A DNA stretch of 64,000 nt, from positions 372,001 to 436,000 of the forward strand of contig BBDR01000001.1 of NCBI GenBank assembly GCA_001312405.1. The letters run 5' to 3'. This DNA is from Clostridium sp. NkU-1. GTDB lineage: Bacteria; Bacillota_A; Clostridia; Lachnospirales; Lachnospiraceae. Below, piece by piece: positions 30,852-37,163 of this stretch. Within the stretch, counting starts at the first letter, position 1. Each line of letters opens with the position of its first letter. A program made the translations under genes and the position numbers. The notes beneath the pieces are model-generated. The model saw only the letters and a program-made list of their open reading frames with translations. It did no database searches and had not been told where the DNA came from.

Positions 30852-31220
30852 TTAGATACTATTTTTTCTAAGTTCGTCTCTCAGCCGCTCCAAAGCTTTT
30901 TTTTCCAGCCGGGATACGTAGGACCTGGATATTCCCATTACATCCGCTATCTCCCGCTGCGTATATTCCTTTCCTCCATGCAGCCCGTACCGCATTCTGA
31001 TTATGGTTTTTTCATTTTCCTTAAGGCAGCTGTCAAAGGCCTCATACAGCTCCTTAATATCCTGTTTTAAAATAATGGTTTCCAATGTCTCCTTATTTTC
31101 CATTTCAATGACATCTACCAGACTCACAGTCTCTCCATCCTTGTCTACGCCGATGGGTTCAAATAGAGAAACCTCTTTTGAATATTTCTTATTTGCACGA
31201 AGAAGCATGAGGATTTCATT
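30852..31220 (-). CDS. sigK: Sporulation sigma factor SigK, C-terminal half (spoIIIC-like), separated by a skin-type element
   Basis: C-terminal part of the late mother-cell sigma factor. It runs from ENEILMLLRANKK (end of region 2) through region 3 to region 4 (YTQREIADVMGISRSYVSRLEKKAL). No start codon or ribosome site fits before EILM; upstream sequence in this frame belongs to the recombinase gene's end. The missing N-terminal half is at 36882-37163 on the same strand. Joining minus-strand base 36896 to 31216 across the shared AATG gives 633 nt in one frame, a 210-residue SigK with normal region order. Confidence 0.9.
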   Translation of the reverse strand, partial: NEILMLLRANKKYSKEVSLFEPIGVDKDGETVSLVDVIEMENKETLETIILKQDIKELYEAFDSCLKENEKTIIRMRYGLHGGKEYTQREIADVMGISRSYVSRLEKKALERLRDELRKNSI

Positions 31221-32905
31221 TGCTATAGTCACCTTGCGGCTCCGGCAATTCAGGCTCCTTGGAGCCAAATAAGTACAGATGGACATTCTCCCCATCCCAT
31301 ATGACCTTATCTACAAAAGTGCGGACCGCCGCACGCTTTTGCTGGACATCCATGAGATCGATTACATTCTGAAAGGAAGAAAGGGTCTGCTTAATCAGCT
31401 GAAGCTCCTGACCGGAAAGCTGCTGATTTCCCGGGTCAAGGGAAAGTTCCCGCAGCCGTTTCTCTATTTCTCCTTTTCTTTTATGGAGTCCGTCAATCTG
31501 CTGAATGATATATTCCTCCGCCCCGGTACCTCCGGCTTTTCCAAGGGAAGCCACCAATCCGGCTATCTCCCTTCGGTATTCTTACGTTCCTCCTTTAAAC
31601 GGGATATATCCCATTCCACTTCCTGCCTGCTCTCTTCCACTTCTTTTTTTTGCTACGGCACAGCTGCTTTTGAAATTCACCAGTATCCTCAGATATTTTT
31701 TTGGATTTCCTCCAGTACCATCTGATCCAGCATATTTCCATTTACATTCTTCATCCCGCAGCATTTCATACGGCTTTTTTTCCTTCATGGTGCATAAATA
31801 GGAATAGATCTGCTCTCCCTTGTCATTGTACCGGCCGGACAGCTTTGGCCGCATGTAATCGCCGCAGCCGCCGCAAAAGAGAATTCCGGACAACAATGCC
31901 ACATTGCTGCGGGGCTTCCGGTAATTTTTTTGACTTATTTTGGTCCAACAGCTGCTGAACATTGACCCACATGGAACCTGAAACAACTCCCTTATGCTTT
32001 CCAACCGCCACGATCCACTCTTCCATATCTTTCATCTCGTGGGTTTTTCCTGCCCTTTGAAGAGTGCGGTTATATGCTATCACTCCGTGGCTTCCGTCAA
32101 AAACTTCTTTTTCTGCAAACAGATCCACCTTTTTTTTTCGCAAATATTCATAGGCTTCCTGATCTGCAATCATATAGACCGGATTGGTCAGTATTCCCTT
32201 TATTGCAAAACGGCTGAACAGGCGGCCGTATTTTGTCCTGTGGCCATTTTGGAGCAAATAGGTTTCCGTCTGGGTCAGTGATCCGGTTTCTAAGAATTTC
32301 TCGTAAATCAGCTTGACCAGCTTTGCTTCTTCCGGAATCAGCTTAAGCTTAAAGGCCTTTTTCACCTTGCCGTCTATAGTCACAGAGGACACGCTCTCCG
32401 ACGTATAACCCGTAGGAGTATTTCCGCCCAGCCATCTTCCACTTTTGGAAAGCTCAAGCATGTTATCCCGGATTCGTTCCGCTATTGTCTCTCTCTCCAG
32501 CTGGGAAAAAACAGAAGCAATGTACATCATGGCCCGCCCCATGGGGGAGGAGGTGTCAAATTGCTCTTTTATGGAGATAAAGGAAATATGAAGCTCATTC
32601 AGCTCTTCAATCAGATTTGCAAAATCACCAATATTACGGCTTATCCGGTCAAGACGGTAGCATACCACCGCTGTAAATTTCTTCTTTTTTGCCTCCTGCA
32701 TCATGACTTTAAACTGAGGCCGCTCCAGGTTTCCTCCGGAAAACCCCTCATCCTCATATACGCAGGCGCTGTCAGCGAAACACGCTCCATAATGTGCAGA
32801 AATGTATTGCCTGCACAGCTCGATCTGGTTACCGATGCTTTCTCCCTTTCCGGTAAATTTTGACTTTCTTGAATAAATCGCAAACCGCTCTTTCCCGGGT
32901 TCCAC
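31216..32905 (-). CDS. Large serine recombinase of the sigK intervening element (SpoIVCA-like), frameshifted
   Basis: Site-specific recombinase expected to excise the element. N-terminal resolvase domain with catalytic Ser15 in YSRKSK, then QIELCRQYI, RLDRISRNIGDF and MGRAMMYIASVFSQLERE. A recombinase domain follows (TPTGYTSE to ILTNPVYM), then a zinc ribbon (FCGGCGDYMRP with a later C-terminal Cys), and a long coiled-coil C-terminus (GLHKRKGEIEKRLREL). GTG start at 32905 behind AAGGAGGAAGG. Indels at about 31930, 31700, 31650 and 31575. The TGA stop (31218-31216) overlaps the crossover AATG next to the sigK C-terminal half. Confidence 0.9.
31217..31220 (-). other. Right crossover core of the sigK element
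   Basis: Minus-strand AATG followed by AAATCCTCAT. It shares AATGnnATCCT with the left site at 36896-36899. Exchange here rebuilds sigK in frame. The exact exchanged dinucleotide cannot be fixed from sequence alone. Confidence 0.75.
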
Positions 32906-33016
32906 CCAAACCTTCCTCCTTACTAAGCAAACGCCTGATTCTGCCTCTTATTCCCAAACATACGGGACATGGGAAGCATCATACATTATAATAAGAGTCT
33001 ATATCAGGTCCTTATT

Positions 33017-33178
33017 ATGAATATGATCGTATATCAACCCAAAACAGAAGAAGGCAGAAAAGAATTGGGAAAAAAATCCGCCATCCTGCACAGCCAGGCT
33101 GTCCTTCAATATATCCAGCAGCTTCCCTGCCCCAATGATCAAAAACAGGTTCTTATAGAAGAGCTTCACACAACCTGA
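33017..33178 (+). CDS. Small protein of the element, 53 residues, unknown function
   Basis: The only plausible plus-strand gene inside the element. It encodes MNMIVYQPKTEEGRKELGKK followed by a mostly helical segment with a PCPNDQ turn. It overlaps the 3' end of the hydrogenase large-subunit gene by 13 nt, tail to tail, and begins about 110 bp from the divergent recombinase gene. Its ribosome site is weak (AGG 8 nt upstream). Small proteins beside large serine recombinases are often recombination directionality factors; this is only a candidate. Confidence 0.5.
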   Translation: MNMIVYQPKTEEGRKELGKKSAILHSQAVLQYIQQLPCPNDQKQVLIEELHTT

Positions 33179-36773: not shown

Positions 36774-36812
36774 TTTGCCGGGGGAATATTGGCGGAAAGG
36801 TTACAAAGCAAC

Positions 36813-36857
36813 AGGAACCGGTGCATGCCCTGCTGTTACAGGCATACACCGGTTCCT
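36813..36857. terminator. Strong hairpin just inside the element, next to the sigK N-terminal half
   Basis: A 17-bp stem, AGGAACCGGTG... pairing with ...CACCGGTTCCT (one G-T), with an 11-nt loop. The plus-strand side ends in TTTAATTTT; the minus-strand side has only a poor T tract. It lies between the sigK N-terminal stop (36882) and the hydrogenase promoter, and could stop sigK transcription from entering the hydrogenase operon. Confidence 0.55.
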
Positions 36858-36881
36858 TTAATTTTGGCAATTTGGGAGCCG

Positions 36882-37163
36882 TCATGATAGGATACCATTC
36901 TCCACACATTTGGCCGCATAAGTGGCCAGTCTGGAGCCTCTGTCTGGATGAAAGGTATTAACGGCTTTAATAAGTCCAATAGTTCCTACGGAAAGAAGGT
37001 CTTCCATATCATAATCCGTATTCTGATATTTTTTTGCCACATGTGCTACCAGGCGCATATTCCGCTCGATGAGTGTGGCTCTCGCCTCCCGATCCCCTTC
37101 CTGGTATCGTTCCAGACACTCTCGTTCTTCTCGCGCAGTTAAAGGTTTGGGAAAAGTTTTCAA
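36882..37163 (-). CDS. sigK: Sporulation sigma factor SigK, N-terminal half (spoIVCB-like)
   Basis: N-terminal half of SigK: KTFPKPLTAREERECLERY, region 2 segments (ERNMRLVAHVAKKY, DLLSVGTIGLIKAVNTF, SRLATYAAKCVEN). Translation leaves homology after CVEN and ends four codons later inside the insert. It starts at a TTG (37163) with AAGGTGG upstream; an in-frame TAA lies eight codons before it, so the membrane-anchoring pro-sequence of Bacillus pro-SigK is absent, as known for C. difficile. The other half is at 30852-31220. Confidence 0.9.
   Translation of the reverse strand: MKTFPKPLTAREERECLERYQEGDREARATLIERNMRLVAHVAKKYQNTDYDMEDLLSVGTIGLIKAVNTFHPDRGSRLATYAAKCVENGILS
36896..36899 (-). other. 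Left crossover core of the sigK element
   Basis: Minus-strand AATG followed by GTATCCTATC; shares AATGnnATCCT with 31217-31220. The distance between the two cores is 5679 bp, the predicted size of the excised circle. Confidence 0.75.

What the first reader, a model, noticed from the sequence alone, without database searches (positions are those of the whole stretch)
30852..37163. A skin-type element splits sigK and carries a complete [NiFe]-hydrogenase operon
Seen directly: the two halves of SigK are on the same strand, 5.7 kb apart, and end at a shared AATG (36896-36899 and 31217-31220). Joining them gives exactly 633 nt in frame, with ...AAKCVEN followed by EILMLLRANKK as in intact SigK proteins. 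A large serine recombinase gene abuts one junction. Known: in Bacillus subtilis and Clostridioides difficile, sigK is interrupted by a skin element removed by a serine recombinase in the mother cell. New here, to my knowledge, is the cargo: not phage or arsenic genes but hydrogenase large and small subunits, a cytochrome-b5-like partner, a small accessory protein and the maturation protease, filling most of the element. This ties H2 metabolism to a sporulation DNA switch.
Basis: partly seen in the sequence, partly recalled or inferred. Interest (0 to 1): 0.95.

Follow-up and report, generated by a model that had tools for sequence, protein, structure and literature searches.

The report
Sporulation DNA switch carrying hydrogenase genes
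In Lacrimispora bacteria the gene for a late spore-forming regulator is split by a stretch of DNA that is predicted to be cut out in the spore-building mother cell, and in most of the genomes searched that stretch carries the genes of a hydrogen enzyme that is likely switched on in the same cell.

Summary
sigK is split at a shared AATG; the halves join in frame (633 nt), and the 5,679-bp insert carries a large serine recombinase and a [NiFe]-hydrogenase operon. It is a trait of the genus Lacrimispora: 0 of 25 genomes had an intact sigK, 24 had its N part alone, and 17 of 17 hydrogenase large-subunit genes found lie in this element. Recombinase and hydrogenase distances track spoIVA (r = 0.987, 0.993), so the element is inherited vertically. 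Added here: a sigma-E-type promoter before the cargo in 17 of 20 loci, with the spacing found before spoIVA and spoIIIAA; a conserved 53-62-residue divergent ORF, a candidate directionality factor; a HypA fold for the small accessory protein; hypFCDE inside one relative's element; and traces of excision (three L. defluvii contigs end at the core; an intact SigK identical to the predicted join lies on a 22-kb contig of undisclosed source). The window's recombinase frame is broken, like about half the genes compared in this error-rich sequence. Mother-cell expression, regulated excision and the hydrogenase's role are inferred. Best filed as a new variant of the skin element.

The parts
36896..37163 (-). 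sigK N-terminal part (ORF 36882-37163, TTG start as called)
   Evidence: TIGR02846 E 1e-41; in-frame join
30852..31220 (-). sigK C-terminal part
   Evidence: NF004471 E 3.7e-43, TIGR02846 5.9e-42; in-frame join
36896..36899 (-). crossover core AATG at the sigK N side (attL)
   Evidence: AATG shared by both ends in 21 of 21 loci examined
31217..31220 (-). crossover core AATG at the sigK C side (attR)
   Evidence: AATG shared by both ends in 21 of 21 loci examined
31217..36895 (-). sigK-intervening element, 5,679 bp
31216..32905 (-). large serine recombinase, frame broken in this window (three ORFs)
   Evidence: Resolvase, Recombinase and Zn-ribbon domains; open in 18 of 19 relatives
33017..33178 (+). 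53-aa ORF, candidate recombination directionality factor
   Evidence: present in 19 of 19 genus relatives, 53-62 aa; two-helix model; function not tested
32960..32987 (+). sigma-E-like site before the 53-aa ORF: ATA-N17-CATACATT, GGACA in the spacer
   Evidence: same layout in 19 of 19 loci scored
33166..34542 (-). [NiFe]-hydrogenase large subunit
   Evidence: PF00374 E 3e-99; cysteine motifs invariant in 8 sequences
34545..35519 (-). [NiFe]-hydrogenase small subunit (true start probably downstream of the one called)
   Evidence: PF14720, PF01058; TIGR00391 above cut-off; matches begin at residue 20-34 in several relatives
35456..35929 (-). cytochrome-b5-like protein
   Evidence: PF00173 E 3e-6; solved cytochrome b5 domain 6nzx E 4.5e-16; detected in 19 of 19 genus elements
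35998..36255 (-). 85-aa HypA-like protein, probably a nickel-insertion factor
   Evidence: model pLDDT 92; the 12 best PDB hits are HypA or HypA-complex chains, best E 2.2e-3; invariant MHD start in 22 sequences
36248..36709 (-). hydrogenase maturation protease, HycI type
   Evidence: PF01750; TIGR00072 above cut-off
36746..36773 (-). predicted sigma-E promoter of the cargo operon, GAATATT-N13-CATATATA
36804..36866 (.). inverted repeat (26-nt arms) between attL and the cargo promoter
   Evidence: role unknown

Best explanation
The 5,679-bp insert is a sigK-intervening (skin-type) element, of a kind present across the genus Lacrimispora, that its serine recombinase likely excises in the mother cell to rebuild sigK, and whose cargo is a [NiFe]-hydrogenase operon likely transcribed in that same cell from a predicted sigma-E promoter. 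Shown by sequence: the split, the in-frame join, the recombinase, the conserved small divergent ORF, the hydrogenase operon, vertical inheritance and the conserved promoter-like motifs. Inferred: sigma-E, perhaps with a SpoIIID-like activator, turns on the 53-aa factor, which makes the recombinase cut the element out as a circle, after which sigK is read through. The hydrogenase operon would be switched on at about the same stage, first from the chromosome and then from the circle, and work only in the dying mother cell, while the spore keeps the integrated copy. The enzyme, matured by Hyp proteins, its HypA-like factor and its own protease, would exchange electrons with the b5-like partner for redox balance in late sporulation; this last step is the least certain.
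For: In-frame join and shared core. No intact sigK in 25 genus genomes, N part alone in 24, C part in 22. All 17 hydrogenase large-subunit genes found lie in the element. Vertical descent: r = 0.987 for recombinase and 0.993 for the large subunit against spoIVA; omega 0.012-0.049 (recombinase residues 1-326) and 0.070-0.083 (large subunit) over four pairs. Sigma-E-type site in 17 of 20 loci, 0.0016 expected per region; positive controls spoIVA 24 of 24 and spoIIIAA 24 of 24. Candidate directionality factor with a conserved upstream site in 19 of 19 loci scored. Traces of excision: three contigs of G019 meet at the 5-nt core AATGA, and a G005 contig ends there; intact SigK identical to the join on a 22,201-base contig. 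Precedents: C. difficile sigma-E turns on an iron hydrogenase (PMC3789822, passages) and the skin directionality factor (PMC5025042, passages).
Against: No expression or excision data. The window's own recombinase frame is broken. At up to 1 mismatch, 0.85 sigma-E-like sites are expected by chance in the window, so the case rests on conservation, and the 20 loci are related. The site is missing in L006, L014 and L019. A stricter pattern finds only 5 sites in the G012 genome, against 3 for the backward control, and the other four are not clear sporulation promoters. The hyp locus of G001 has no such site at its start. Operons outside the genus show none at 1 mismatch. The 53-aa protein has only 9 listed relatives, none of known function. 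The source of the intact SigK is not shown.
Confidence: 0.72

Rival explanations
1. The switch is real, but the hydrogenase is a growth-phase enzyme that merely sits in a stable place; the sigma-E-like motif is secondary or accidental.
For: Related operons lie outside sigK in many Bacillota and show no such promoter at 1 mismatch. Five of 19 fetched genus elements have no hydrogenase, so it is not needed for the switch.
Against: The site keeps its sequence and spacing in 15 of 15 loci that have the hydrogenase and in 2 of 5 without it, and matches spoIVA and spoIIIAA sites of the same genomes.
Confidence: 0.2
2. The element is a dead remnant: it no longer excises, and these bacteria sporulate without sigma-K or not at all.
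For: The recombinase frame is broken in the window and shortened in L018.
Against: Open recombinase in 18 of 19 relatives under strong constraint; sigK halves stay in frame in all 19 fetched genus loci, although in three of them (L006, L014, L019) a second insertion cuts the C part again; assembly and protein traces of the joined form.
Confidence: 0.06
3. The element is a still-mobile island that spreads between strains.
For: Large serine recombinases are typical of mobile elements; cargo varies (alpha-galactosidase, AraC regulator, hyp genes).
Against: Same site in every genus locus fetched; distances follow spoIVA closely. Of the seven products scanned, only the recombinase hits a PHROG of known function, an integrase; the two hydrogenase subunits hit PHROGs of unknown function.
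Confidence: 0.02

Closest known systems
skin element of Clostridioides difficile (CD1231 recombinase, CD1234 directionality factor; PMC5025042, passages read)
   Same: Interrupts sigK; large serine recombinase; small separate protein, there under sigma-E and SpoIIID; excision rebuilds sigK.
   Different: The C. difficile element is described as prophage-like; here no phage genes apart from the recombinase, a hydrogenase operon as cargo, and presence across a genus. Homology of the 53-aa ORF to CD1234 was not tested.
skin element of Bacillus subtilis (spoIVCA; recalled and from introductions of papers read)
   Same: Interrupts sigK, excised by a serine recombinase in the mother cell.
   Different: Prophage-like; its cargo (arsenic genes, recalled) is not a hydrogenase; different clade.
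gin element in gerE of Bacillus cereus ATCC 10987 (PMC5595907, part 1 of 6 read)
   Same: A non-prophage sporulation gene-intervening element.
   Different: Sits in gerE, has three serine recombinases and 31 genes. The second sigK insertion seen in four relatives is more like gin.
[NiFe]/[NiFeSe] group-1-like hydrogenases (PDB 5jsu and others)
   Same: Both CxxC motifs, Fe-S small subunit, C-terminal tail and a maturation protease.
   Different: Cysteine at the last motif; no twin-arginine signal seen in the small subunit by eye; encoded with a b5-like protein and a short HypA-like protein.

Membership tests
sigK-intervening (skin) element | Interrupts sigK so that the halves join in frame at a short shared core | tested here: met
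   Window and 19 of 19 fetched genus loci; in three of these a second insertion also cuts the C part
sigK-intervening (skin) element | Large serine recombinase encoded in the element | tested here: met
   Domains; one open frame over 550 aa in 18 of 19 relatives; frame broken in the window
sigK-intervening (skin) element | Precise excision that leaves an intact sigK and a circle | tested here: inconclusive
   Contig ends at the core in G019 and G005; intact SigK P0010; no reads or PCR
sigK-intervening (skin) element | Excision limited to the mother cell during sporulation | not testable with these tools
   Only promoter-like sites
Prophage-like origin (usual, not required: gin lacks it) | Phage genes in the element | tested here: not met
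   7 products scanned: recombinase hits an integrase PHROG, the two hydrogenase subunits hit PHROGs of unknown function, the other four none
[NiFe] hydrogenase | Two CxxC nickel-binding motifs and a C-terminal tail for protease cleavage in the large subunit | tested here: met
   Invariant in 8 aligned sequences
[NiFe] hydrogenase | Small subunit with Fe-S domains | tested here: met
   PF01058, PF14720
[NiFe] hydrogenase | Hyp maturation genes in the genome | tested here: met
   HypD in 16 of 17 hydrogenase-bearing genus genomes; the window's own genome is not held
[NiFe] hydrogenase | H2 activity | not testable with these tools
   No assay
HypA nickel chaperone (85-aa protein) | HypA fold with an N-terminal metal-binding histidine | tested here: met
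   (no hit below E 1e-3)
HypA nickel chaperone (85-aa protein) | Zinc-finger domain | tested here: not met
   85 aa without two CxxC pairs, by eye on the alignment; hence HypA-like
Recombination directionality factor (53-aa ORF) | Small element-encoded protein that binds the recombinase and enables excision | not testable with these tools
   Size, place and conservation fit; binding not tested

The most novel reading that the evidence does not exclude
A whole genus has turned an intervening element into a domesticated two-in-one sporulation module: the DNA switch that makes sigma-K also carries a mother-cell-only hydrogenase operon, so that hydrogen metabolism runs from a DNA circle that exists only in the terminal cell. 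Skin elements of other Lachnospiraceae that carry transport and sugar genes point to a general class of 'metabolic skins'.
Probability: 0.5. Interest if true: 0.88.

Novelty: new variant of a known kind. Interest (0 to 1): 0.76.

Why it matters
Skin elements are usually read as tamed prophages. Here an element without phage genes other than its recombinase has been kept at sigK across a genus, in most species with an enzyme operon that appears wired to the mother-cell programme. That makes two questions testable: what hydrogen metabolism does for spore formation in fermenting anaerobes, and whether cargo needed only in the mother cell is what keeps such elements in place. The 2.65-kb elements of two relatives (recombinase, small factor, one cytochrome-b5-like gene) offer a very small natural developmental recombination system.

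Tried and rejected
Own-genome search was impossible. A strict sigma-E pattern over G012 gave 5 hits, one of them the hydrogenase promoter, against 3 for the backward control; from ORF lists only, the other four were not clear sigma-E genes. The hyp locus of G001 has no sigma-E motif at its start; a 2-mismatch hit lies in what looks like coding sequence. Outside the genus no operon promoter was found at 1 mismatch; some clostridial relatives keep CATATATA without a standard -35 spacing. A first scan of spoIVA and spoIIIAA ignored locus orientation and missed minus-strand loci; it was redone. A cytb5 dN/dS is unusable because the stretches were not aligned through indels. Rfam gave nothing. Literature: 8 searches showed no paper on a hydrogenase in a sigK element; most subscription papers are not held. 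Papers: PMC3789822 passages and section 8; PMC5025042 passages; PMC5595907 part 1 of 6; PMC10747680 passages; all others listings only.

Misses and dropped rows: G011 (67% complete) shows no sigK half and counts as a miss. One search scored 18 relatives and the window; L017's ORF was found there but its upstream site was not scored, and L020 was not scored. One search dropped L128 (no open large-subunit frame) and missed at least L102, L109 and L111, which have a site. One search kept 80 of 275 matches. One search scored 7,999 candidates and listed 120 of 5,131. One search used ORFs of at least 120 aa with matches over 80% identity, so the recombinase counted there as unbroken.

Full report
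Observation. The two parts of sigK lie on the minus strand at 37163-36896 and 31220-30852. Joined at the shared AATG they give 633 nt and 210 residues in frame, and both match SigK families best. The insert of 5,679 bp carries, in the direction of sigK, a HycI-type protease, an 85-aa protein, a cytochrome-b5-like protein, small and large [NiFe]-hydrogenase subunits, and a large serine recombinase that ends at the second junction. The recombinase frame is broken in this window, but 26 of 54 genes compared with the nearest genome also show frame changes, 44 in all. I read this as sequence quality, not decay, but cannot prove it.

It is a genus trait. The nearest held genomes belong to Lacrimispora: contigs of G008, G003, G021, G024, G010 and G019 have the lengths of the named records L101, L108, L109, L110, L111 and L107. 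In 25 genus genomes no intact sigK was found; the N part was found in 24 and the C part in 22, and the full-length matches were SigE-like (45% identity) or weaker. Nineteen loci with both parts on one contig share the site and an AATG core, with elements of 2.65 to 11.5 kb. The large subunit was found in 17 of 25 genomes and lies in this element in all 17: 14 with both sigK parts on the contig and 3 (G005, G016, G019) on contigs with other element genes (L106, L114, L107). Five of the 19 fetched elements lack it (L006, L011, L014, L017, L019); the b5-like gene is detected in 19 of 19. In the family, 397 genomes searched, three outside the genus have a match at E 1e-60, and no sigK part lies within the 17-20 kb fetched round them.

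Vertical inheritance. Distances of the recombinase follow those of spoIVA with r = 0.987 over 171 pairs (0 of 1,000 permutations as high) and those of the large subunit with r = 0.993 over 91 pairs. Presence of the hydrogenase needs one change on the spoIVA tree, but the deciding branch is weak, 60/15. Omega over four pairs is 0.012-0.049 for recombinase residues 1-326 and 0.070-0.083 for the large subunit. The element is old and maintained.

Promoters. GAATATT-N13-CATATATA lies at 36773-36746, before the protease gene. It is the only site in the window with up to 1 mismatch at that spacing and has none, but 0.85 such sites are expected by chance, so conservation must carry the case. In 17 of 20 genus loci (19 relatives and the window) a site with at most 1 mismatch and spacer 13 lies within 150 nt upstream of the first hydrogenase-cluster gene or of cytb5; 0.0016 are expected per region. 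The loci are related and not independent. The three misses, L006, L014 and L019, have no hydrogenase. As positive control, spoIVA has a site with 1-2 mismatches and spacer 13 at one fixed place in 24 of 24 genus genomes, and spoIIIAA in 24 of 24 at -134 or -135. In C. difficile, sigma-E promoters have an ATA -35 box and spoIIID has ATA-N16-CATATATA (PMC3789822, section 8 and passages). The same paper lists an iron hydrogenase in the sigma-E regulon, so a hydrogen enzyme in the mother cell has a precedent.

Candidate directionality factor. Between hydrogenase and recombinase, on the other strand, lies an ORF of 53-62 residues found in 19 of 19 genus relatives, minimal elements included. Upstream, 19 of 19 loci scored have ATA-N17-CATA(C/T)A with GGACA in the spacer. 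I take this as a weak sigma-E site possibly helped by a SpoIIID-like activator; the SpoIIID reading of GGACA is recalled, not tested. In C. difficile the factor CD1234 is a 72-aa protein under sigma-E and SpoIIID, and excision was not detected in its mutant (PMC5025042, passages). The model of the 53-aa protein is two helices. A protein search listed 9 relatives, none of known function. Function is not shown.

Traces of excision. In L. defluvii PI-S10-B5A (G019) the sigK N-part contig ends, the sigK C-part contig begins, and the 7,842-bp element contig begins and ends at the same core AATGA; all four pairings overlap by exactly those 5 nt. The simplest reason is that the sequenced DNA held integrated and excised forms together. 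A MAG element contig (G005) also ends exactly at AATGA. A search with the joined SigK found P0010, 210 aa, identical over its full length, on a 22,201-base contig. The tool shows no source, a mark it uses for proteins of the window itself, though the window does not encode this protein in one piece; it may be an excised form in the same material or a strain without the element. No reads were available.

Hydrogenase. The large subunit keeps both cysteine pairs and a tail after the last motif; its best solved relatives are [NiFeSe] hydrogenases. The 85-aa protein belongs to a family with an invariant MHD start. Its model (pLDDT 92) has HypA or HypA-complex chains as the 12 best hits, best E 2.2e-3 and none below 1e-3, but it lacks the zinc finger. 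HypD is present in 16 of the 17 hydrogenase-bearing genomes and in 5 of the 8 others. In G002 hypF, C, D and E lie inside the element. Related cytb5-hydS-hydL operons occur in many Bacillota outside sigK (80 of 275 matches kept); three records by title (L125, L132, L139) name other phyla and may be mislabelled. Of 9 such genomes checked, 3 have a sigK over the family cut-off and four (L117, L118, L120, L179) show only partial sigK matches. So the element seems to have captured an existing operon that, in this genus, has a sigma-E-type promoter not seen elsewhere (7 of 79 loci with at most 1 mismatch, all of the genus; that scan missed at least three genus loci).

Placing. It works like a skin element with a directionality factor. 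Membership is met on structure, inconclusive on excision, untested on timing, and it differs from described skins in lacking phage genes other than the recombinase; gin shows that phage genes are not required (PMC5595907, part 1 of 6). No paper found in 8 searches describes hydrogenase cargo.

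Noticed in passing
L021 606-9015; L022 and L023 (same place in sigK); L024 6471-13476: In four relatives (G007, G017, G025, G016) a second insertion of 7.0-8.4 kb splits sigK again, at GISRSY/VSRLEKK, so sigK is in three pieces; in L021 it carries three serine recombinases, a polysaccharide deacetylase and a beta-propeller-like repeat protein, and recalls gin.
   Followed up: partly
protein P0048: A 213-aa SigK-like protein on a 4,232-base contig is joined at the first site but still runs into sequence of the second insertion, as if the first element were gone and the second still there.
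   Followed up: no
L020, L050, L027/L028: Split sigK in three other genera of the family carries metabolic genes: an oligopeptide transporter (L020), DUF1538, P-II-like and oxidoreductase genes (L050), and GH16 and GH94 genes with an NB-ARC/TPR protein (L027/L028).
   Followed up: partly
L002 1383-2693; L003 6882-9136 and similar elements: Several elements also carry an alpha-galactosidase gene; L003 adds an AraC-type regulator on the other strand.
   Followed up: partly
window 31216-31220: The recombinase stop codon straddles the crossover in 16 of 19 relatives and in the window; in 9 of these 17 the circle would turn it into TGG or TGC and lengthen the recombinase.
   Followed up: no
whole window: High rate of frame changes against the nearest genome: 44 in 54 genes compared, which suggests indel errors.
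   Followed up: partly
genomes behind L117, L118, L120, L179: Anaerobacterium, Pseudobacteroides, Petroclostridium and Geosporobacter show sigK only as partial matches, Geosporobacter in three.
   Followed up: no
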